Below are positions 10,413 through 23,810 of a stretch of DNA of 64,000 nt, in pieces. Both the position numbers and the translations under genes were made by a program. The stretch spans positions 62,001 to 126,000 of the forward strand of contig DAOURK010000001.1 of the NCBI GenBank assembly GCA_030625085.1, in the 5' to 3' direction. Below the pieces are notes generated by a model that worked only from the letters and a program-made list of their open reading frames with translations, made no database searches and was not told where the DNA came from. Numbering within the stretch: the first letter of the stretch is position 1; the number at the start of each line of letters is the position of its first letter. The stretch comes from Pseudomonadota bacterium (GTDB taxonomy: Bacteria; SZUA-182; DTGQ01).

Positions 10413-13400
10413 ATGCCCAAGTTTTTGAAAAATTTTTTATTGATCTCTCTTTTGATTGGGGTTTTTACTGTTTTTTTGTTGACCAAACCCAAAAGTACCA
10501 TCGCTTTTTCGGTGGTAGGAAATGTGATTACCTATGATGTAATGCACGATAAATTTTATTCGGTTTGGCAGGCTGACGGTCTTTCCGGAACCATAGTAGA
10601 TGTTAATGTTTCAGTTTATACTAGTTCAGATGGGACCGGTTTAGTGAGCGGCATCACCACGACGAATAATATTTGGAAAGATTCAGGATCTTATAATTAT
10701 GTGAATACTATGGGCTGGAGATTTGATAATACCGGTCTTATGGGGGTGAAGGTAAGTGGTCTGGATCAAGTAAACACACAATATTATTACAAAATTACCG
10801 TTCATGAAAATATTGGCGGCACAATTTCTTATCATGATATTCCATCCGGCGCGAATGATTTTATACCTGTTCATACTATGTTCGATGAATCCAGCAATAC
10901 TGGAGCATCGGGTAATCCTGTCAGACAATTTAAGGTATATGATGAGAGTGGAAACCCTCTTGATGGAGCTATAGTCCTTATTCAAGTTACAGGAGATTAT
11001 TGGGATCCAACAAGCGCCAACCCATCTAAATATTCACCTTATTCGGTTGCCGGCGATTCGATGTCCGGCTGGACTTTTGATGGTGGTAAATCGAATGTGT
11101 CTTTTAGTGGCGGTACACTTTTTAAAGAAAGCCCCGTTTATCGTCTCATGGTAATCCAGGGGGATGAAATGATGAGGGTTACCTGCTTGGGTGGATATAT
11201 GGGAAATGCAACTATAGATATTGCACAACATGATAATTATAACAATCATCAGGCTGAGTTTGGTTGTCCCAGCTATCCGAATGATCCCTCCTCATGCTCC
11301 GCAAACAGCGACAGGAATATAATTAATCTAGCCCCCAACCAAGCGCCCGATATTTCGATCACAGACGATCATAGCATGAGATTCCTTAATAACCAATACG
11401 TCCTTTTGGATACTGAAAATTTTGAACTCGATGTAAGAGCTTCAGATGCAGAAGGGGAGGCCATTAGTAATTGGGCTTTGACAAGCGAACCGGGTGGTAT
11501 GACCATCACGGAACAATCCGATGCGAATTATTCCAAAATAGAGTGGGATCCGGGTAGTGGCGATGTTAGATCAACACCCTATTCTGTTTCAGTCACTGTT
11601 CAGGATATTAACGAAAACACCGGGAGTCTGCCCTTTACCATTTTAATCACTGATGGGAAGCCCTCTGATCCGGCCGTTTCAGTTACGCCGGCTGTTCCCC
11701 GAACCGGTGACCCCCTGGTGTGTGGAATTACAACAGGGAGCACTGATCCTTTAGGCCTTTCCATTACTTATGAGTATGCTTGGTACGAGGATACGGGTTT
11801 ACGTGCCGATATTACGGGAAATACAGTACCATCCGGGGAAACCGAAAAGGGAGAGGATTGGTATTGTTCGGTAAAGGCTGTGAATTCAAATTCTGATGAA
11901 AGTGGCGCTGTTAACTCGAATACAGTAACAGTTGTGAATACTCCTCCTACCGCAGATATTACCGTAACCATTAATCAATCCAACCCGGATACGGACACTG
12001 ATTTGACTGCCAACATTGTCTTGACGAATTGTTATGATGCGGATGGGGATTCTTGTAATACCCAGATTAAATGGTATGAAAGTGGCGACCCCGGCACATC
12101 TTATTCAACTACCGACTCTCTTGCCCACAGTAATACCAGCAAAAACCAGACATGGTATTGTGAGGCTACTGTGTGGGATAGCGAAGAGGGAACGGGTACC
12201 GGTTCGGATTCTGTCACTATTATCAATTTACCGCCCTCTGACCCTGCGGGTATAGGTATTGAGAGGGGCGCCGGCGGGAGCGGGATAAGATGTTATATAA
12301 ATACCTCAAGCACCGACCCTGACACAGGCGACAATCCGGTAACCTACCTTTATAATTGGACATGTACGGGGCCAGGAGCGAATACGGGTCAGACCTCGTC
12401 AACCAATACGGAGTATACTCTGTCCGATACCGGCAATCCGATCGCGGATGTAGCCAAAAACCAGGTCTGGACCTGCAGTGTGCAAGCCTCCGATATGGAC
12501 ACAGGGAACCCAGGGCTGAGCGCCATCGTTCCTTGTGCTGGAAGTCTTACCATTTTAAATACTAAGCCTATTTGGGATATTTCCGATCCACTAACCCTCA
12601 CGCCTGATCCGGCCTATAATGATACAGAGATCATCTGTACCATGGCCGCGAATGCAGCAAGTGATGCTGATGCTGATACGGTTGTTTATACCTATCAATG
12701 GTATAAAGATAATGGTTCAATGGCTTCCTATAGGGATGCCAATACTTCCTCTTTGACTTCAACTCTCCCCGTTTCTGCAGGTTTAGAGCAGGCTGCAACC
12801 TATAAATGTGAGGTTTCGCTGTGGGATGGTCAGGAAGCGGGTAATGATATTAAGAGTGCTTCGGTGACCATTGGAAACAGGCCCCCGACCATTACTGTTC
12901 GGAAGGGAAGTGTTGTAATAGGTGATGGAGAAATGGTGCAAGTCACGGAAACCGAGGAACTCGTATTGACTATTGTCAGTGACGATGCGGACAACAATGC
13001 GCTTAGTTCCTTAGATGCAGATGCGAATATACCTACTGTTGCTGTGAATGGTGGGGCAGTGATTCAAATTGTCGGTGATCCAAATGAAGCCGAGTTTACA
13101 TGGACCCCTGCTCAGGGAGATGCCGGAACCTATGAGGTTGTTTTTAAGGTTCAGGAAACAGACGGCCCTGATTCACTAGAGACTACCCATTCAGTGCAAA
13201 TTAAGGTAATTTATCCATCGAAGGTAATTGATAATTTTGAATTTCAGAGCGAACCCGATCCCGATTGGTATCTTCCCGCTAACGACGCCGAGAAAGACTT
13301 GGAAGAACGGTCCGATCATGGCTGGTCCGTATTGACCGGGAGTGGTGATATATATAGAGAATCATATGAAAATGATCCTAATGACCATTATTTGAATATG

Positions 13401-15767
13401 GTTTCGAATGAAAGTGATCCCTTAAAGTATATAACCACCTTGTGGCTTGCCGATCCTAATGAGACAAAAGATTTCTATGAAGTGAGATGTGATATTGATA
13501 CCAATAGCCCCTATACTGTTGAGGCTTATGTACACGTTGTGGATACTGTGTCTGGGGTTGAGAAAGATTATTTCTTGCGTTACATTCCTGAGGATCCAAG
13601 CCAACATGATGGGAATAAATTTGAGGTTGATGCGATGCGTATCAATTACTATATTGGAAGTGAGTTTATTGATCCAAATGGGTGTTCATTAGAGCGCAAT
13701 ATGGAGAATGATATACACAATGCTATTGCTGCCAAAGGAAAGCAATATCAATCCCATTATGATTTTGTGTGGGGCTTCATTCTTCGTGGAGGTATAGATA
13801 AGTTTGATAATTTGGAAGTGGTTTATGGGGAAAGAGATACTGTTTCTCCTAAACCTCCACAAACCGGGAGTGCCGTTGGAATTAATGAAGCGGTAGTTTT
13901 AACTTGGGAGGATGACCCAAATCAGGATGCTGATGTGATTGGCTATGAAATCGCATGGCAAAAAGATGAGGGGCAAACCTATACACCTCAAAAGGTCTAT
14001 GTATGGGAGGAGGGAATAAGCGGAGAGGTGAAAAGTTGCACAATTCCTTTTGCGGAGAACTACCCTGGTGGGCATTATTTATTCACCATCAAGGCCTTTG
14101 ACGATGCAAAAGAAGCTAATTACAGTAGTGCACTTGAGCTTCAAGCGACACCCCATATAGATTCAAATCCTCCGGATATGGAGGAGTGTGATTTAACAGC
14201 CCAAGCGCCGGAAACACAAGGAGAGACCATAAACCTTGCGTGGACTGATCCCGGTGCGGCTAATTTATCTTATTTTATACTTTATATGGATGGCACTGAG
14301 ATCGCTACCCTGGATAAAAGTGTTTTTACCTATCAGAAGACCGGTCTGGTGAACGATACACAATACGAGTTTAAGCTAAAGGGCTATAATGGGGATGGCT
14401 ATGGCAGTGGCGTGGATTCCCCTGAGGCGACAGGAATTCCAATGGCACCGAAGGTGCTTGTCTTTGATGACTTTGAGTATGTTGCTCAAAGTCAGACCCC
14501 TATGCAACATGGGTGGAAGGTTCTGCAAGGTAGCGGAAACATGTATGCGGTTGAGGAAGATGGCAATTCTTGTATGCATATGACCGCAAATTACACTACA
14601 ACCGCTAAGACGAATTTTATCATAACCAAATTCGTAGATGATCCTGAGGATTATACCAATACCAAATTGTATTTTAATCTCAAAGGCTTAGTAGGCGAGT
14701 TTAAAATTGATCTTTTTATAAGCGACACTAATGGGAATAGATACTTCCTGAGATATAGCCCGAATGCGACGTATAATGAACCAAAGCCCGACCCTTGTAA
14801 AGTTGGGATGTATATTACCCATTATCTTGACTGGCGGAATAATAACGGCACCGTTTGGCATCCTGTAGTGAGAGATCTACAAAAAGACCTTCAGGATGGC
14901 GTACCTGGGGCTACCTTTGGTTCTTTTCTGGGAATGGTCATCCGAGGAGAGGTATTTATTGGACACATTATCTTTATGAGGGCTCTGCCCGAGGTCGGCA
15001 GTTTAGTTGCCATATCAGGTAATACGCTGGTAGATTTGTTCTGGACCAGGACTGATCCCAATGTCGATGATTTTTACCTCTCTGTTGACGGAGCAGCGGA
15101 TGTACTTATTGATAGCGCAACCCATTCTTTGCTCATTGACGGGAACCAGTGCTCCTGCACAGCAGACGGTTTGACCAATGATACGGCATATTCATTCACA
15201 GTTAAGCAGGGAAATAGTAGTGGTGTTACGGTTTCAGCTACACCCCATGACTTCGTGTTCGTGGAGGATTGTGATAGTTTAGGTGACTGGACGGATCAGG
15301 GATCAACGCTTGGAAGTTATAGCATTGTTGTGGATCCTGAGACTCACGATGATGTGCTGGTAATTGATCCTGACGACACTGCGGCCAGCGGATACCTTAT
15401 TCGCTATTTTGTTGAGCTTGTGCCTAATATTACCACAGGGAAATCTAAGGTGATGGTAAACATTAAATCCGGTCAGGATTTTGTGTTGTGGTTTACAGTA
15501 AAGGATACTATCGGAGTAGAGTACAATCTTTTATATGCATCCGGTCAAGGAACCGATTCGGCCTTCGGTACATGGTCCTTTAGTTATCTGCCCTCTTGTG
15601 CTGATGGCAATTGGATTGATGGTAGCTGGCATACGGTAGATTTAGAATTAAATGATAATCTGTTATTATCGGGGGTACAGGGGTACGGTGTTCAAGTAGA
15701 TGAGATTACAAATGTTTCCATTGGTGGGTGCGATGATGTTAGCGTTGATAATTTAAGCGTTTACTAA
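10413..15767 (+). CDS. Giant secreted multidomain protein (FN3/Ig-like repeats and three large beta-sandwich-like modules)
   Basis: A 1784-residue protein with signal peptide (about 1-32) and no obvious anchor. By eye the order is: FN3-like block 35-135; a second beta domain 155-270; a cadherin-like domain 310-415; five Ig/PKD-like domains (about 418-510, 511-605, 606-715, 716-822, 823-933), several with a WYC or YKC motif; module A 938-1139; FN3 1140-1247 and 1250-1342; module A 1348-1525; FN3 1525-1612; module A 1614-1784. The first two A modules share an opening DNFEF/DDFEY, then HGW(S/K)VL(T/Q)GSG and YFLRY; the third is more diverged. Module A looks like a carbohydrate-binding-type jelly roll, which is an inference. 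AAGGAGG precedes the ATG. Likely an adhesin, matrix protein or sugar-binding scaffold. Confidence 0.85.
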   Translation: MPKFLKNFLLISLLIGVFTVFLLTKPKSTIAFSVVGNVITYDVMHDKFYSVWQADGLSGTIVDVNVSVYTSSDGTGLVSGITTTNNIWKDSGSYNYVNTMGWRFDNTGLMGVKVSGLDQVNTQYYYKITVHENIGGTISYHDIPSGANDFIPVHTMFDESSNTGASGNPVRQFKVYDESGNPLDGAIVLIQVTGDYWDPTSANPSKYSPYSVAGDSMSGWTFDGGKSNVSFSGGTLFKESPVYRLMVIQGDEMMRVTCLGGYMGNATIDIAQHDNYNNHQAEFGCPSYPNDPSSCSANSDRNIINLAPNQAPDISITDDHSMRFLNNQYVLLDTENFELDVRASDAEGEAISNWALTSEPGGMTITEQSDANYSKIEWDPGSGDVRSTPYSVSVTVQDINENTGSLPFTILITDGKPSDPAVSVTPAVPRTGDPLVCGITTGSTDPLGLSITYEYAWYEDTGLRADITGNTVPSGETEKGEDWYCSVKAVNSNSDESGAVNSNTVTVVNTPPTADITVTINQSNPDTDTDLTANIVLTNCYDADGDSCNTQIKWYESGDPGTSYSTTDSLAHSNTSKNQTWYCEATVWDSEEGTGTGSDSVTIINLPPSDPAGIGIERGAGGSGIRCYINTSSTDPDTGDNPVTYLYNWTCTGPGANTGQTSSTNTEYTLSDTGNPIADVAKNQVWTCSVQASDMDTGNPGLSAIVPCAGSLTILNTKPIWDISDPLTLTPDPAYNDTEIICTMAANAASDADADTVVYTYQWYKDNGSMASYRDANTSSLTSTLPVSAGLEQAATYKCEVSLWDGQEAGNDIKSASVTIGNRPPTITVRKGSVVIGDGEMVQVTETEELVLTIVSDDADNNALSSLDADANIPTVAVNGGAVIQIVGDPNEAEFTWTPAQGDAGTYEVVFKVQETDGPDSLETTHSVQIKVIYPSKVIDNFEFQSEPDPDWYLPANDAEKDLEERSDHGWSVLTGSGDIYRESYENDPNDHYLNMVSNESDPLKYITTLWLADPNETKDFYEVRCDIDTNSPYTVEAYVHVVDTVSGVEKDYFLRYIPEDPSQHDGNKFEVDAMRINYYIGSEFIDPNGCSLERNMENDIHNAIAAKGKQYQSHYDFVWGFILRGGIDKFDNLEVVYGERDTVSPKPPQTGSAVGINEAVVLTWEDDPNQDADVIGYEIAWQKDEGQTYTPQKVYVWEEGISGEVKSCTIPFAENYPGGHYLFTIKAFDDAKEANYSSALELQATPHIDSNPPDMEECDLTAQAPETQGETINLAWTDPGAANLSYFILYMDGTEIATLDKSVFTYQKTGLVNDTQYEFKLKGYNGDGYGSGVDSPEATGIPMAPKVLVFDDFEYVAQSQTPMQHGWKVLQGSGNMYAVEEDGNSCMHMTANYTTTAKTNFIITKFVDDPEDYTNTKLYFNLKGLVGEFKIDLFISDTNGNRYFLRYSPNATYNEPKPDPCKVGMYITHYLDWRNNNGTVWHPVVRDLQKDLQDGVPGATFGSFLGMVIRGEVFIGHIIFMRALPEVGSLVAISGNTLVDLFWTRTDPNVDDFYLSVDGAADVLIDSATHSLLIDGNQCSCTADGLTNDTAYSFTVKQGNSSGVTVSATPHDFVFVEDCDSLGDWTDQGSTLGSYSIVVDPETHDDVLVIDPDDTAASGYLIRYFVELVPNITTGKSKVMVNIKSGQDFVLWFTVKDTIGVEYNLLYASGQGTDSAFGTWSFSYLPSCADGNWIDGSWHTVDLELNDNLLLSGVQGYGVQVDEITNVSIGGCDDVSVDNLSVY

Positions 15768-16601: not shown

Positions 16602-16676
16602 GTCCCCATCGTCTAGGCCGGTCAAGGACACCGCCCTTTCACGGCGGTAACGGGGGTTCGAATCCCCCTGGGGACG
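16602..16676 (+). tRNA. tRNA-Glu (anticodon TTC)
   Basis: Acceptor stem GTCCCCA (16602-16608) pairs with TGGGGAC (16669-16675), discriminator G676 (position 16676). The anticodon stem CCGCC/GGCGG closes the loop CTTTCAC, giving anticodon TTC. The T arm GGGGG/CCCCC encloses TTCGAAT. CCA is not encoded. The transposase remnant lies about 170 nt upstream. Confidence 0.96.
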
Positions 16677-16912
16677 CTTTATTTTTTTCAATCTTTTCAA
16701 TATGTTAAAAGTTTTTCTTGCTGATTTCAAAATTTGAGTTTCTCAGGTTCAATTAATTTATCCATATCCCCCACTTATATCAAGTTACATTTAATGATAG
16801 TTTAATATTTTTGTGGCCATAGCGCAGCAATATATGATTAGGATTGTCACGTCGCCTTAATCCTTACATTGGCTTTTTCATCTTTTGATTGCACGTCGGT
16901 ATAAATTAAAGA

Positions 16913-17296: not shown

Positions 17297-17661
17297 AAGA
17301 TGTTCGAATACTATTTTTTTGAATAAATTTTTCAATTTATCTGAGTCTGAAACTTTACTTATGTAATGTTATTCGCTATTATATGAATCTGGGGGATTTT
17401 ATTTAGATTGAGAAGAAAATCAGCAAAAGCAAGGGTTTAATTCATAAATTGAGCACCTAAATTTTTTGGATTGCTTATTACAAGGCAAGAGAAAATAGCA
17501 ATTTAGGAATTGTTCAGTTATCGAGTTTCACTAAGAATGAGCCGAAGAGATGATAAGGCCGGAAGTTTGACCAAAATGGCAGGTAGTGGAAAAGCATGAG
17601 CTTAGGCTTAAAAAATTAAGGGTAAAAGAGACTAACGGGTTTATTAATTTTGGAGAGAGAA

Positions 17662-20340
17662 ATGGTTAAAGATGAAAATGTAAATACCCAACCAATGGAG
17701 CGAGACGAAAATGGTGAAGATAAAGAAGCTATGATAACTGAAAATATGGCTCTCTTTGGTCATATGTTGGAAGAATCCAGAAAAGAGCGAGAAGGACTCA
17801 ATGAGTTACTCAATCAGATGCGCGCTCAGATTGCCGGTCTTTGTGAAAATAGCGAAATGATCATGCGGGTTGAAAAACGGGTTGAGACTTTGCAATTTTT
17901 ATCTGAGGCCACGGAGAAAAAAATTTCAGAGATCCTTCAATTTCGGGAGCATATCGATGATGTAAATCGAAAATTAGACGCTTTTACTGCCCTTGATCAA
18001 CAATTACATAAAAAGTATGAAGATTTATCAGCTCAAAAAAAGATTTTTGATGGAATGAAGACAGAGGTTGAGCAATTTCAGGGGACTGTTGGACAGATCG
18101 ATGAACATATTCATACCCTCCAGGAAGAAACCGGGCAGTTAGGACAAAAGATGGATCAGATAGCTGATCGAAAGGTTGATATTGATTTGGCGGTGGAGGA
18201 GGCTGAAAAATTTTCTGCTCTTATGGAGAAACTGCATATAGAGTTCAAAGAAATAGAACAGGAGCGGGGGGCTGTTTTTTCGCAGATGGCAGCTTTTACT
18301 GATCGCGCGGCTAAATATGAAGATTTGATCGGGAATGTTCAAAAAAAGGTTGAGGAGGTGGAAAGGGATCGAAAGCAATATGAAATGACCAAACAGAAGT
18401 TGGACAACCTGAATTCATTGTATGAATATATTAAAACCAAAATGAATACCTTATCCCAGCAGCGTTTGATTGTGGAAAAGGCCAATGAAGAAGCAGGGAG
18501 GCTTAATGTCTTATTTTGGGACATGGAAGCGAAAGTAAATAAATTGACTGAAGAAAATAAATTAATTAAAAAGACTGAAAAAAATGTTTTGCGTTTAGAA
18601 TCGATGTTTAATGATGTAAATTCTAAGATTAAAGAGGTTAATGAAGCAAAGGTCTTTTTAAGTAATGTCAGTGAACAAATGGATGGCTTACAATATGTAA
18701 TGCAGGAAGTTAATGAAAAGAGTAAGACATTGGATGAAAGGCAACAGAATATAGATAATTTGGGAGAGCGGATTGATTATTTGCGTTCACGGATAGAGGA
18801 TGTGGAGCAGAAAGGGGACGATATTTTATCCTTACAAACTGATGTTCAAAAATCCAGGGAGCAGCTTTATAATGTGAATCAGGAATTGCAGGAAGTAAGA
18901 AAAGAATGTGATGAAGTGCTGGATCAAAAAGGGTTGATCAAAGAAGTAAAATCTCAATTGCTGGAAATAGATGTATTAACGCAAAATATGCAATCAGAGG
19001 CGGAACGAATTGAAGGGAAAGGAAAATTGATTGAGCGAATAGAGGGGAAAGTGGGAAATCTTACTTCTAGTCTTCTGGATATTGAAGAGCGAATGATGGG
19101 TATAGAGTCTAAGAGATCTGAACTGAATGAACTGGAATCTCAAATTAGTGAAATAAAAAAAATGGGTGAAACGGTTACCAAAACAGAAGAGGAAATGCTC
19201 GAGAGGTCCGGCCATATTCATAAGATTCAGCAGCAGACGGAAAGCTTGACTCGCCTTTCCGGTGAGCTGAATGGGAAAATGGATTTGTTGGATCAACGTC
19301 AATCCTTTATTGAAAGCCTGGAAACCCGGGTTTCTCGTTTGAATCAGGTGAGTAATGAGCTTGAAGGCCGGATTGAGATGGTTTTGGAGAATAAATCAGA
19401 GGTCGAGAAGACGGAGGAAAAATTAAGCGCCTTAAAGGTTACCCTGAATGATGTCCAAGGTAAAAGCGCTGAGTTTTTGCACGAGAAAGCAAAAATTCAG
19501 CAAATGTACGAACAAATTGAGGAGTTGCATGTTCAGACCAATGAAGTGAAGCAAATGGTTGGTCAGATTAATGAAAATAAGGAAGCAGTTCAGAAAATTC
19601 ATGCTACATTGAGTGAAAATGAAACCAAAATTTTAAATCTTTTTGGTTCAATAGATCATAAAATCCACGATGTTGAGCATTGGCGTACAGAAGTTCAAGA
19701 GATTATGGAAAGTCAAATGGCCCAATTTCGAGATATGCTTCAACAGATGGATGAGGGTGCAGCCAAGGCTTCCGATAGGATGGTAGATGTTGAAAAGATG
19801 GAGCATAAGTTGAAGAACCTTTCTCAATTGGATAGAGAAATTGAGAAGAAAATTGATGTCCTTGCCACCCGAAAGAGTGCTTTGTCTGAGTTGGAGAAGA
19901 AAATTGACACCCTGGAGGATTTATCTCGGGGGATTAATGATATTATGGGGAAGATATCCGGGGGGAAAGATGCGATTGAGAATACCAATAGGGATATTCA
20001 GGAAGTAAATTTGTTGGCCCAGGACCTCCGAGGTCGAATGCAAAGCCTGCTTTCGGAAAAGGAAAAGGTAGATGAAGTTGATAGCAGGTTAAAAAGTTTA
20101 CACAGTTTAATGACCGATACTCATAAGAAGATGGGGACTATTTTGAAAAATGTTCAACTGATTGATGAGGCGGATTACCGAATGAAGAAACTGGACCTTA
20201 TGGCTGAAGATCTTAAGGTGAAGTTAGAGACTTTGGCTCAACAGGAATCAGTAGTTGAAGAAGCGAATAAGCAGGCGGGTCAGTTGCAATTTTTATTGGG
20301 AGAAGCTGACGTAAAAATTAAAAAATTACAAAATTCATAG
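17662..20340 (+). CDS. Long cytoplasmic coiled-coil protein with an exact 31-residue repeat
   Basis: An 892-residue protein with no signal peptide, membrane segment or ATPase motif; almost the whole length is Glu/Lys/Gln-rich coiled coil. ATG 17662 is preferred over TTG 17650 because GGAGAGAG precedes it. A repeat of the form R/K-x-x-x-L-x-x-L-x-x-D/E-hydrophobic-x-x-K-hydrophobic recurs every 31 residues. Counting from the TTG, the anchor hydrophobics fall at 223-254-285-316-347-378, 533-564-595-626 and 724-755-786-817-848-879. A period of 31 is 4 heptads plus 3, so the coil must shift register in every repeat. It may form a filament or scaffold; automated labels such as SMC would be misleading because no SMC ATPase heads exist. 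The deacetylase gene follows 27 nt later. Confidence 0.85.
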   Translation: MVKDENVNTQPMERDENGEDKEAMITENMALFGHMLEESRKEREGLNELLNQMRAQIAGLCENSEMIMRVEKRVETLQFLSEATEKKISEILQFREHIDDVNRKLDAFTALDQQLHKKYEDLSAQKKIFDGMKTEVEQFQGTVGQIDEHIHTLQEETGQLGQKMDQIADRKVDIDLAVEEAEKFSALMEKLHIEFKEIEQERGAVFSQMAAFTDRAAKYEDLIGNVQKKVEEVERDRKQYEMTKQKLDNLNSLYEYIKTKMNTLSQQRLIVEKANEEAGRLNVLFWDMEAKVNKLTEENKLIKKTEKNVLRLESMFNDVNSKIKEVNEAKVFLSNVSEQMDGLQYVMQEVNEKSKTLDERQQNIDNLGERIDYLRSRIEDVEQKGDDILSLQTDVQKSREQLYNVNQELQEVRKECDEVLDQKGLIKEVKSQLLEIDVLTQNMQSEAERIEGKGKLIERIEGKVGNLTSSLLDIEERMMGIESKRSELNELESQISEIKKMGETVTKTEEEMLERSGHIHKIQQQTESLTRLSGELNGKMDLLDQRQSFIESLETRVSRLNQVSNELEGRIEMVLENKSEVEKTEEKLSALKVTLNDVQGKSAEFLHEKAKIQQMYEQIEELHVQTNEVKQMVGQINENKEAVQKIHATLSENETKILNLFGSIDHKIHDVEHWRTEVQEIMESQMAQFRDMLQQMDEGAAKASDRMVDVEKMEHKLKNLSQLDREIEKKIDVLATRKSALSELEKKIDTLEDLSRGINDIMGKISGGKDAIENTNRDIQEVNLLAQDLRGRMQSLLSEKEKVDEVDSRLKSLHSLMTDTHKKMGTILKNVQLIDEADYRMKKLDLMAEDLKVKLETLAQQESVVEEANKQAGQLQFLLGEADVKIKKLQNS

Positions 20341-20367: not shown

Positions 20368-21918
20368 ATGTATTGTGAAAATCATCCGGAAAAACAGGTA
20401 AATACTCGATGTAAATATTGTTGGAAACCGATTTGTTCGGATTGCATCATCATGGTCGGCCAGGAATCTTTTTGCAGCCTGCGTTGTTATGCCATGTTTC
20501 TGTTGAATGAAATTCGGTGGCAATGTCGCCGGATTTTTTTTAGACAAGATCTTTATTTACGTTCCAAAATTGTTCATATAAATAAATATTCAACCCTCGC
20601 TTTAATTTTGATCTTTTTCAGTATGGGCTTGATTTTTTTCTATTCAAAAACTACCGAAGAAAGGTATGTCTATCCGCCTGAGCCGCCGCCGGTCACGGCT
20701 AATACCCCATTTGTATCTTCCCTTGGAAAGGGCGATGTTAAAGAGCAAAACCTGAAAGAGCGGAATTTGTTAAAAGAAAAGGGGAAAAAGGGTCTCTCGG
20801 AAGATTTTCAAAACAATTTATCCAATGGGGATGCTTCTCTTCCCACTTTGGCCCTGGAAGGAGAAAATAGTGCTTTTAATATCAGCCTTGCTACTGATTA
20901 TCCCAAACCGCCTCCTTATATTGTTGCTATTTGTGGCGAAGCTCCAAGCAATAGTATCGTTGCTCTTTATAATAATGGCCGATTAGGCGATACTGTGCCA
21001 TGCAGGAAAGGCAGATTTATTTTTCCGCGAATCAGACTAAAAAGGAATAAAAATTTATTACAAGCAAAATTGATTACTCCTGATGGAGATTTTCGGTTCT
21101 CTAATAGACTGGAGTTGGATGTAGACATAGCTACATCTAAAATTCAGGAAAAAGGGATTGATATTCGGCGCGGTAATCTTCAATATCCCGGGATATGTTT
21201 AAGTTTTGATGCAGGAACAAACGAAGATGCATCCTCTTACATACTGAAAGCCCTTAAGAAAAAGGGGGTGCAAACGACAATTTTTTTAACTGGGGCATTC
21301 ATACGAAGGAACCCGAAAATTGTCATGCAGATGGTTAATGACGGCCATGAGATCGGAAATCATACGGACACTCATCCTCATTTGGCTAAATTTGAAAACC
21401 GTCGGTTTAAATGCTTGCCATGGGTTAATCGCGAATTTGTTCATCGAGAATTAAAAAAAGTGGAAGAGGCTTTTTACCATTTGACCGGTAAAAATTTAAG
21501 CCCTTATTGGCGTTCTCCTTATGGGGAATCTAATTTAAAAATTCGTAAATGGGCCGAGGAGTTAGGCTACGTCCATGTTTCCTGGACTTGTGGCCGGGCC
21601 TGGGAGGATGGGCTGGACAGTCTTGATTGGGTGACAGATACGTCTTCGATTAAATATCACTCTGCTGATGAGATTCAGGACCAAATAATAAATTTTGGCA
21701 AGGGCACAAGATACGCCGCCAATGGAGGGGTTGTATTGATGCACTTGAGCACCTCCAGGTCGTTTAAAGATGCAGTCTATACCAGGCTGCCGGAAATTAT
21801 TGACGGATTGCGCGACAGAGGCTGTGAAATAGTGAAAATTTCCCAGGTACTTTCCGAAATTCCTGAGAAGGGGGGTGGGGAAGGTCAAATTAAGAGCGCT
21901 GGGACTAATAATCCATGA
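20368..21918 (+). CDS. B-box-like zinc finger, membrane anchor and NodB polysaccharide deacetylase fusion
   Basis: A 516-residue protein. Residues 1-40 carry a zinc-finger pattern (Cys3, His6, Cys15, Cys18, Cys23, Cys26, Cys36, Cys40) of the B-box type often fused to bacterial membrane proteins. One membrane helix follows at about 75-92, then a linker, an Ig-like domain (about 180-255) and a NodB/CE4 domain (about 270-505). The CE4 motifs are SFDAG, with Ala in place of the usual second Asp of TFDDG, HTDTHPH (metal His) and RSPYGES. The finger would face the cytoplasm and the deacetylase the periplasm. Substrate unknown: peptidoglycan, exopolysaccharide or another N-acetylated glycan. Confidence 0.85.
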   Translation: MYCENHPEKQVNTRCKYCWKPICSDCIIMVGQESFCSLRCYAMFLLNEIRWQCRRIFFRQDLYLRSKIVHINKYSTLALILIFFSMGLIFFYSKTTEERYVYPPEPPPVTANTPFVSSLGKGDVKEQNLKERNLLKEKGKKGLSEDFQNNLSNGDASLPTLALEGENSAFNISLATDYPKPPPYIVAICGEAPSNSIVALYNNGRLGDTVPCRKGRFIFPRIRLKRNKNLLQAKLITPDGDFRFSNRLELDVDIATSKIQEKGIDIRRGNLQYPGICLSFDAGTNEDASSYILKALKKKGVQTTIFLTGAFIRRNPKIVMQMVNDGHEIGNHTDTHPHLAKFENRRFKCLPWVNREFVHRELKKVEEAFYHLTGKNLSPYWRSPYGESNLKIRKWAEELGYVHVSWTCGRAWEDGLDSLDWVTDTSSIKYHSADEIQDQIINFGKGTRYAANGGVVLMHLSTSRSFKDAVYTRLPEIIDGLRDRGCEIVKISQVLSEIPEKGGGEGQIKSAGTNNP

Positions 21919-21951: not shown

Positions 21952-22383
21952 ATGGCTATTGAAGAGGGAGTTGTAACTGGGATTGAAGAATCATTTGCAT
22001 TGGTAAAGGTGGTTCGAAAGACCGCCTGCGCACATTGTCCTTCCGCCGGCTCTTGCCACATTGAATCCGATCGTGATATGCTCGTAAAGGCTCAGAATGA
22101 AGCCGGCGCAAGAATTGGTCAGAGAGTAAAACTTTTTATTTCTCCAGGCTCGATCTTGGCAGCTTCATTTTTATTATATCTTGTTCCTCTTTTTGGTTTA
22201 GTGATGGGAGCAGCCATAGGTAAATTAGTGGTGGCTCCTTTTTTTGCTAATCTATCTTCAGAGCTTTTGGCCGCCGGGATTGGTTTGATAACCATGGCTG
22301 GCGTTTTTTTAGGAATTCGGTTTTATGATCAACACCGTAGACAAAAAGAGAAATATATCCCCAAAATCATTCAAATACTTTGA
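21952..22383 (+). CDS. RseC/MucC-family membrane protein
   Basis: A 143-residue inner-membrane protein of the RseC/MucC family, linked in E. coli to sigma-E control and to reduction of SoxR through the Rsx complex. The N-terminal domain has a cysteine cluster CAHCPSAGSC (about residues 26-35) that could bind metal or an Fe-S cluster, followed by two membrane helices (about 63-85 and 95-120) and a basic tail. It is 33 nt downstream of the deacetylase, so the coiled-coil, deacetylase and RseC genes may form one operon. No rnf/rsx genes are in view. Confidence 0.85.
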   Translation: MAIEEGVVTGIEESFALVKVVRKTACAHCPSAGSCHIESDRDMLVKAQNEAGARIGQRVKLFISPGSILAASFLLYLVPLFGLVMGAAIGKLVVAPFFANLSSELLAAGIGLITMAGVFLGIRFYDQHRRQKEKYIPKIIQIL

Positions 22384-22595: not shown

Positions 22596-23810
22596 ATGGG
22601 TGAAGTTAAAAAAATCGGCCTTATAACCAGTGGTGGCGATTGCGGTGGGTTGAATGCAGTAGTCAAAGGGGCCGCTCAGATGGCTAATTCTCTGGGCATT
22701 GAGCCTGTTGTTATTCCTAATGGCTATGCCGGGTTATATAATTTAATACATTTTGAAAGCTTAACTACCTTAACCCCAAGCCGTTTGAGTCAATTTGAAG
22801 CAAATCCGGCGGGATCTGAAGCAGGCCATTCTCGAGTAAAGATAAGAAAGATTAATGACCCTGGAAAATATGACAGAATTAAACAAGGGTTACAACGTTT
22901 TTCAATAGACGGTTTACTTATCAGCGGAGGTGATGACACGGGCAGCGTTTTGGTAGATCTTTCCGATCAGGGAATCCCTTGCATCCATGCCCCCAAAACC
23001 ATGGACCTGGATTTGCAATCCTACTCTGTGGGCGGGGATTCTACTATTAATCGCATTACCCAATTTATTCAAGACTTAAAAACCACCGGCCGAACTCATA
23101 ATCGTATTATTGTAATTGAGGTTTTTGGAAGATATGCCGGCCACACGGCTCTTCGCGGCGGGGTGGCGGCTGAGGCAGACGCAATTTTAATTCCGGAAAT
23201 TCCGGTGGATTTTAATATTTTATATCATCATATGGTTACAACCTTCACCCAACGAATTCGAGAAAGCGATGTCAAGGCTGGGACTTATACTATCGTTGTA
23301 TCAGAGGGATTGGCTGATGCTTCAGGCAGAGAAATTATCGATGAAAGCGCCGGGATTGATGCTTTCGGGCATAAGAAATTGGCTGGCGCTGGGAAATATG
23401 TTTGTCAGGAATTGGAAAAACGCTTAAAGGCTGATCCAGGAATTAAACAATTTATGCAAGACACTGGGCAATTTGTCCAGGGCTTGTATGAATTCCCAGA
23501 GATTCGAAGTGTTCGTCCCGGACATTTAGTGCGATGTGGCGCATCTTCCTCTTATGATGTTAATTTTGGGAAAGAAGCAGGGGCCGGTGCAGTGCTATTG
23601 CTGAGAAGGGGGATTACCGGTGTAACCATCTGTGGAATAAAAGGTAACAAGATTTTTTATCAAAAAACCAGTGAGGTTATTAAACAACGTTATGTTGACT
23701 TAGATTTGGTGGCCTTGTATGAAGATATGGGGTTTTGTTTTGGTCGGGAATCCGGGACATATAAAGGTGAAGCAACCGAGATAATTGGGCCGATTGATCG
23801 AATATATTAA
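22596..23810 (+). CDS. Phosphofructokinase, predicted pyrophosphate-dependent
   Basis: Phosphorylates fructose 6-phosphate. The 404-residue protein has the PFK fold with the nucleotide loop LITSGGDCGGLN at the N-terminus. Two sites separate ATP from PPi enzymes: GGDD (Asp114, where ATP enzymes have Gly) and PKTMD (Lys134, where ATP enzymes have Gly in PGTID). Both are of the PPi type, so it should use pyrophosphate and run reversibly. The catalytic Asp137 is kept, but the usual TIDND reads TMDLD. The substrate motif EVFGRYAGHTAL is present. GGAGGG lies 8 nt before the ATG. It stands alone. Confidence 0.88.
   Translation: MGEVKKIGLITSGGDCGGLNAVVKGAAQMANSLGIEPVVIPNGYAGLYNLIHFESLTTLTPSRLSQFEANPAGSEAGHSRVKIRKINDPGKYDRIKQGLQRFSIDGLLISGGDDTGSVLVDLSDQGIPCIHAPKTMDLDLQSYSVGGDSTINRITQFIQDLKTTGRTHNRIIVIEVFGRYAGHTALRGGVAAEADAILIPEIPVDFNILYHHMVTTFTQRIRESDVKAGTYTIVVSEGLADASGREIIDESAGIDAFGHKKLAGAGKYVCQELEKRLKADPGIKQFMQDTGQFVQGLYEFPEIRSVRPGHLVRCGASSSYDVNFGKEAGAGAVLLLRRGITGVTICGIKGNKIFYQKTSEVIKQRYVDLDLVALYEDMGFCFGRESGTYKGEATEIIGPIDRIY

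What the first reader, a model, noticed from the sequence alone, without database searches (positions are those of the whole stretch)
17662..20340. 892-residue coiled-coil protein with about twenty copies of a strict 31-residue repeat
Anchor hydrophobic residues recur at exactly 31-residue steps in three long runs (six, four and six repeats by hand count). Thirty-one is 4 heptads plus 3, so the coiled coil shifts by a stammer in each unit. Such strict long-period repeats are a mark of structural filaments rather than of SMC-like proteins. The protein lacks signal, membrane and ATPase segments and heads a likely operon with a membrane glycan deacetylase and RseC.
Basis: partly seen in the sequence, partly recalled or inferred. 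Interest (0 to 1): 0.65.

Follow-up and report, generated by a model that had tools for sequence, protein, structure and literature searches.

The report
Fixed-length bacterial coiled-coil rod protein
This gene encodes a long, rod-shaped helical protein built from about 26 near-regular 31-residue units, whose length has stayed fixed in distantly related bacteria and which tends to be present in genomes that also carry flagella, suggesting an undescribed internal scaffold, possibly for motility.

Summary
The 892-residue protein (17662-20340) has a dominant 31-residue hydrophobic period (autocorrelation 0.49 at lag 31; none of 10,000 block shuffles reached it). One run of 14 units (residues 218-651) has no phase slip; a second of about 6.6 units closes the protein. 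Each unit has nine core layers in 31 residues (3.44 per turn), one of them polar, which fits three heptads plus a decad: one stammer per unit. Homologues at 21-62% identity occur in the window's small phylum, Nitrospinota (18 of 24 genomes), Tectomicrobia and further groups. In all 20 homologues with both anchors, two conserved motifs lie exactly 588 residues apart. The deacetylase-RseC-PFK order is kept only in the window's own order; elsewhere neighbours are mostly metabolic genes. NCBI's SpiroCoCo_C model matches, but the protein lacks the membrane segment, 3.63-period rod and helix-turn-helix tail of SpiroCoCo proteins; only the period class is shared. In Nitrospinota the gene goes with flagellin (18 both, 0 gene only, 1 flagellin only, 5 neither), while MreB is universal. 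Best reading: a cytoplasmic, fixed-length, overwound coiled-coil scaffold rod, possibly linked to flagella. Polymerisation and function are untested.

The parts
17662..20340 (+). 892-aa coiled-coil rod protein with about 26 31-residue units
17652..17659 (+). GGAGAGAG, likely ribosome-binding site of the ATG at 17662
   Evidence: direct reading
17764..18276 (+). N-terminal repeat runs (residues 35-205, two phases, about 5.5 units); much of this segment is an extension present in the window's order and absent from the shorter Nitrospinota forms
18313..19614 (+). main run: 14 consecutive 31-residue units (residues 218-651) without phase slip
18409..18606 (+). most conserved segment (residues 250-315): LSQQRxxVEKANEEAGxLNVLxWDMExKxxKLxEENKLxKK
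   Evidence: alignments
19615..19707 (+). the one large phase break of the C-terminal half (residues 652-682), shift of -5; low model confidence there
19708..20325 (+). last run, about 6.6 units (residues 683-888), ending in the second conserved motif (residues 840-881)
20368..21918 (+). adjacent gene: B-box-like cysteine-rich N-terminus, probable transmembrane segment, polysaccharide deacetylase; adjacency kept in the window's order only
21952..22383 (+). RseC/MucC family protein, third gene of the conserved local order
22596..23810 (+). phosphofructokinase family, fourth gene of the conserved local order

Best explanation
A cytoplasmic, all-helical rod protein that forms a long coiled coil (dimer most likely, inferred). 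Each 31-residue unit gives nine core layers and fits three heptads plus one decad (a stammer), with one polar layer per unit, so the rod is uniformly overwound (about 3.44 residues per turn, calculated pitch about 10 nm against about 15 nm for heptads). Its length is held fixed by selection: about 110-130 nm if fully extended. It most likely works as a scaffold or cytoskeletal rod of set length that presents its two conserved motifs, 588 residues (about 87 nm) apart, to partners or to neighbouring rods. In Nitrospinota at least its service seems tied to flagellated cells, e.g. placing or anchoring flagella. Shown: repeat, register, spacing, conservation, co-occurrence. Inferred: dimerisation, self-assembly, partner binding, link to flagella.
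For: Period 31 with constant phase over 14 units. Nine core positions per unit, with only 0.19 hydrophobic at the layer at unit position 19. Helix over nearly the whole chain in the AlphaFold model, low confidence. Few prolines inside the rod across the family. No catalytic, membrane or signal domain. Exact 588-residue motif spacing in all 20 homologues with both anchors, at 21-62% identity to the window protein. Single copy in the window's genome. Flagellin tracks the gene in Nitrospinota: 18 both, 0 gene only, 1 flagellin only, 5 neither (Fisher p 1.4e-4, not corrected for ancestry), with absence in two separate families (G347; G355-358), while MreB is in 24/24. FlhA gives the same picture. 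A flagellin gene lies 3-6 kb from it in four Nitrospinota genomes. The window's own genome has two flagellin genes.
Against: G004 and G162 carry the protein without detected flagellin or FlhA; G002 and G338 have flagella genes without it. FlhA was not found in the window's own genome, which is 95.6% complete. Neighbours are not flagellar genes in most genomes. No evidence here for self-assembly or a partner. The AlphaFold model is single-chain with mean pLDDT 61, so it shows helix only. There is almost no non-helical C-terminal tail, unlike classical intermediate-filament-like proteins.
Confidence: 0.55

Rival explanations
1. General envelope or cell-shape scaffold: a bacterial coiled-coil-rich protein that organises cell-wall work, in the window's lineage together with the neighbouring membrane deacetylase whose zinc-finger end is probably cytosolic.
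For: Deacetylase adjacency in 4 of 4 carriers of the order; a class A penicillin-binding protein is next to it in G223. Known coiled-coil-rich filament proteins act in shape, motility and division (PMC7002697).
Against: The wall-gene neighbours are not kept in Nitrospinota; presence tracks flagellin there while MreB does not discriminate.
Confidence: 0.25
2. A branch of the SpiroCoCo family: the window protein would be a version reduced to the C-terminal SpiroCoCo domain.
For: NF047515 SpiroCoCo_C 174 bits, above its cut-off of 125, hits in all 18 members; profile comparison probability 94%, E 9e-8; the C-terminal 270 residues of three SpiroCoCo proteins have the same 3.457 period.
Against: The score is summed over several stretches; single stretches give at most 52 bits. 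SpiroCoCo proteins have an N-terminal hydrophobic membrane-type segment, about 970-1350 residues of 3.636 period, a DUF6115/helix-turn-helix end and no WDM motif. Surface residues of SpiroCoCo_C fit the 31-residue profile no better than its own N-terminal rod does.
Confidence: 0.15
3. Generic coiled coil (SMC- or Rad50-like arm) with no special length or period.
For: Weak matches to SMC and Rad50 models.
Against: No ATPase head or hinge; fixed 31-residue phase and 588-residue spacing; unrelated coiled coils in the fetched loci have periods 3.63 or 3.75.
Confidence: 0.03

Closest known systems
Bacterial coiled-coil-rich, intermediate-filament-like proteins (crescentin, FilP, Scy, Scc, HmpF group)
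   Same: Long cytoplasmic coiled coil, no enzyme domain, likely scaffold
   Different: Sustained 31/9 overwound period, fixed length, almost no C-terminal tail; no sequence relation shown to crescentin; filament formation untested
SpiroCoCo family (NCBIfam NF047514, NF047515)
   Same: C-terminal domain has the 31-residue period class and a significant profile match
   Different: No membrane segment, no 3.63-period rod, no DUF6115/HTH end; carries a WDM motif that SpiroCoCo lacks
Stammer-containing coiled coils such as the Actinobacillus OMP100 stalk (PMC4786415)
   Same: Three-residue insertion giving local overwinding
   Different: There a stammer is a local discontinuity; here one appears in every unit over hundreds of residues
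SMC/Rad50 coiled-coil arms
   Same: Long coiled coil, weak profile matches
   Different: No ATPase head or hinge; regular 31-residue register

Membership tests
Intermediate-filament-like coiled-coil-rich protein (criteria as used in PMC7002697) | At least 80 residues of coiled coil | tested here: met
   About 850 residues of coiled-coil periodicity; the COILS program itself was not run
[quoted passage not shown]
   Short head of about 20 residues, helix predicted to residue 891, so no tail (low confidence)
Intermediate-filament-like coiled-coil-rich protein (criteria as used in PMC7002697) | Self-assembly into filaments without cofactor | not testable with these tools
   Needs purified protein
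SpiroCoCo | SpiroCoCo_C profile above its curated cut-off | tested here: inconclusive
   174 bits for the whole protein against 125, but at most 52 bits per stretch in the genome search, marked below cut-off
SpiroCoCo | N-terminal membrane segment followed by a long rod of about 3.63 period | tested here: not met
   Seen in G312, G025, G173; absent here
SpiroCoCo | C-terminal DUF6115/helix-turn-helix end | tested here: not met
   Found in the SpiroCoCo proteins; no Pfam match of this kind in the window protein
SMC/Rad50 | ATPase head with Walker motifs | tested here: not met
   No such domain; SMC and Rad50 models match only through coiled coil, far below their cut-offs
Crescentin | Sequence relationship to crescentin | not tested
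   No crescentin sequence was compared directly; a search of PDB chains with the family profile listed no molecule of that name at E 0.001

The most novel reading that the evidence does not exclude
An undescribed class of bacterial cytoskeletal rod built on a sustained 31/9 overwound coiled coil, kept at a fixed length as a molecular ruler in flagellar placement, with a related module at the end of spirochaete SpiroCoCo proteins.
Probability: 0.2. Interest if true: 0.78.

Novelty: new variant of a known kind. Interest (0 to 1): 0.52.

Why it matters
[quoted passage not shown] stammers are described as local strains (PMC4786415). A natural coiled coil that carries one stammer per unit over hundreds of residues, with zero net insertions or deletions over 588 residues between distant phyla, would be a ready test system for overwound coiled coils. 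If the flagellar link holds, it would also name a missing scaffold part in Nitrospinota, an ecologically important and hard-to-culture group.

Tried and rejected
Generic coiled coil or SMC arm: rejected by block shuffles and absent ATPase head. SpiroCoCo as plain orthologue: first rejected on whole-protein period, then revised after per-domain analysis showed a shared period in the C-terminal domain; the surface-residue test was inconclusive. MreB partnership by co-occurrence: uninformative, MreB is in all 24 genomes. Phage origin: a scan of viral contigs found no relative. Recent tandem duplication of units: neighbouring units are not clearly more alike than distant ones (p 0.066). Single-protein scan of genome contigs: no relatives; the alignment scan worked. 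AlphaFold single chain: helix only, mean pLDDT 61, so no fold search was made. PDB sequence search: only weak matches to unrelated coiled coils. Literature search for SpiroCoCo or a 31-residue coiled-coil repeat: nothing relevant in the held open-access library.

Full report
Observation. The ORF at 17662-20340 encodes 892 residues. The ATG at 17662 has a good ribosome-binding site. Hydrophobic autocorrelation has its three highest peaks at lags 31, 62 and 93 (0.49, 0.44, 0.38), and the same three lags top the residue-identity and BLOSUM self-similarity lists. Against shuffles that keep blocks of 1 to 28 residues intact, the lag-31 value was never reached in 2000 trials per block size. Mapping the phase along the protein shows one uninterrupted run from residue 218 to 651, exactly 14 units; a break at about 652-682; and a final run from 683 to about 888. 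Two shorter runs lie before residue 206. The total is about 26 units.

Unit anatomy. The best nine core positions per unit are 1, 4 or 5, 8, 12, 15, 19 (or 18), 22, 25 and 29. The choice between positions 4 and 5 and between 18 and 19 cannot be settled from sequence. The core layer at 18/19 is mostly polar, position 11 is 70% Lys/Arg, and position 25 is often Ala, Val or Thr. A period of 31/9 = 3.44 is well below 3.5; the calculated supercoil pitch is about 10 nm against about 15 nm for heptads. The eLife paper on alpha/beta coiled coils states that the vast majority of known departures from the heptad are above 3.5 and that stammers strain the helix (PMC4786415).

Family. In the window's small phylum (9 genomes held), G001 and G003 have 61-62% identical full-length homologues and G004 one of 26%. 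Named relatives are MAGs filed as Nitrospinota, Nitrospirae and Tectomicrobia, and two filed only as 'bacterium'. The Nitrospirae-labelled contigs whose lengths match those of G351, G352 and G354 fall in the same phylum as G213, i.e. with Nitrospinota. In that phylum 18 of 24 genomes have the protein. Strong members also occur outside it in G039, G146, G162, G223 and G301. More distant ones with the same 31-residue period occur in G069, G267 and G334, and weaker matches in 12 of 47 genomes of the phylum of G334, most of those examined again with period 3.44-3.47. The 18-sequence alignment is almost gap-free over about 650 columns. In all 20 distinct homologues where both anchors were recognised, the WDM motif and the C-terminal LxFLL-type motif are exactly 588 residues apart. 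One compensated pair of one-residue shifts separates the window's clade from the others. The surface residues of repeats 471-651 fit a profile made from other phyla and other repeats best in the expected phase.

Surroundings. The gene order coiled-coil, B-box/deacetylase, RseC, phosphofructokinase is kept in G000, G001, G003 and G004. Outside the order it is replaced: leuB-like and asd upstream, and a phosphorylase (mtnP-like) and a class III aminotransferase (hemL-like) downstream, in many Nitrospinota and in G301/G162; a yjeF-type gene downstream in others; a class A penicillin-binding protein in G223 (the names leuB, mtnP and hemL rest on my reading of the sequences). So the neighbours do not define the function.

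Co-occurrence. In Nitrospinota, flagellin and the rod protein are both present in 18 genomes, both absent in 5, and one genome has flagellin alone (Fisher p 1.4e-4, not corrected for shared ancestry). FlhA gives the same picture apart from one incomplete genome, G344. MreB is in all 24. In the window's phylum three carriers have flagellin (G000, G001, G003), four non-carriers lack it, G002 has flagellin only and G004 the rod only. The own genome has two flagellin genes on one contig although FlhA was not found. G039 lacks flagellin but has FlhA. The exceptions G004 and G162 show that the link is not absolute. I treat it as the best functional lead, not as proof.

SpiroCoCo. The NCBIfam SpiroCoCo_C model scores above its cut-off on the whole protein and hits all 18 members, so automatic annotation may give this family that name. 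Three genomes with proteins over that cut-off in one stretch were inspected. Those proteins begin with a hydrophobic membrane-type segment, have a 970-1350-residue rod of 3.636 period, and end with a DUF6115/helix-turn-helix region. Their C-terminal 270 residues do have the 3.457 period, and a profile comparison gives 94% probability. A test on surface residues does not separate this from ordinary coiled-coil charge patterns. I conclude same period class, homology unresolved, and not a SpiroCoCo protein by architecture.

Mechanism and confidence. A long fixed-length rod scaffold is the best reading (0.55). Fixed length with two specially conserved motifs near the ends of the conserved part suggests that the distance itself, or lateral register between rods, matters. 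Filament formation, oligomer state and partners are inferred and untested. The AlphaFold model only confirms helix.

Noticed in passing
L024:9042-12005 (-), L031:3-2996 (+), L087 from 9042 (-): A second coiled-coil protein type (up to about 990 aa) in Nitrospinota loci has a period of about 3.745, i.e. 15/4 pentadecads over at least 200 residues, a right-handed type.
   Followed up: no
window 17662-20337: NCBIfam SpiroCoCo_C passes its cut-off only by summing several weaker stretches, so annotation pipelines may label this family as SpiroCoCo.
   Followed up: partly
L046:4280-9358 (-), L047:239-4228 (+), L048:4734-8660 (+): SpiroCoCo proteins are composite: a 3.636-period rod of about 970-1350 residues followed by a 270-residue domain of 3.457 period and a DUF6115/HTH end.
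   Followed up: partly
L012:4333-4935 and L049:10402-10989: A family of about 200 aa without Pfam match (EEYxxKYxPKKxDRFxYN) lies near the rod gene in two genomes of different families.
   Followed up: no
window 10413-15767: 1784-aa protein with a signal-like N-terminus, a fibronectin type III domain and a weak Ig-like match, a probable surface protein.
   Followed up: no
window 16602-16677: tRNA-Glu (ttc) between the surface protein and the rod gene; a second tRNA (Pro, cgg) lies at 299-374.
   Followed up: no
window 20368-20460: The deacetylase begins with a cysteine-rich B-box-like zinc finger ahead of its probable transmembrane segment, so the finger is probably cytosolic.
   Followed up: partly
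G013:C26:8341-8556, G013:C24 and G013:C5 (L065 holds the first): G013 has only a short remnant match to the rod protein, and its flagellin and FlhA matches each contain an in-frame stop, as if both were decaying together.
   Followed up: no
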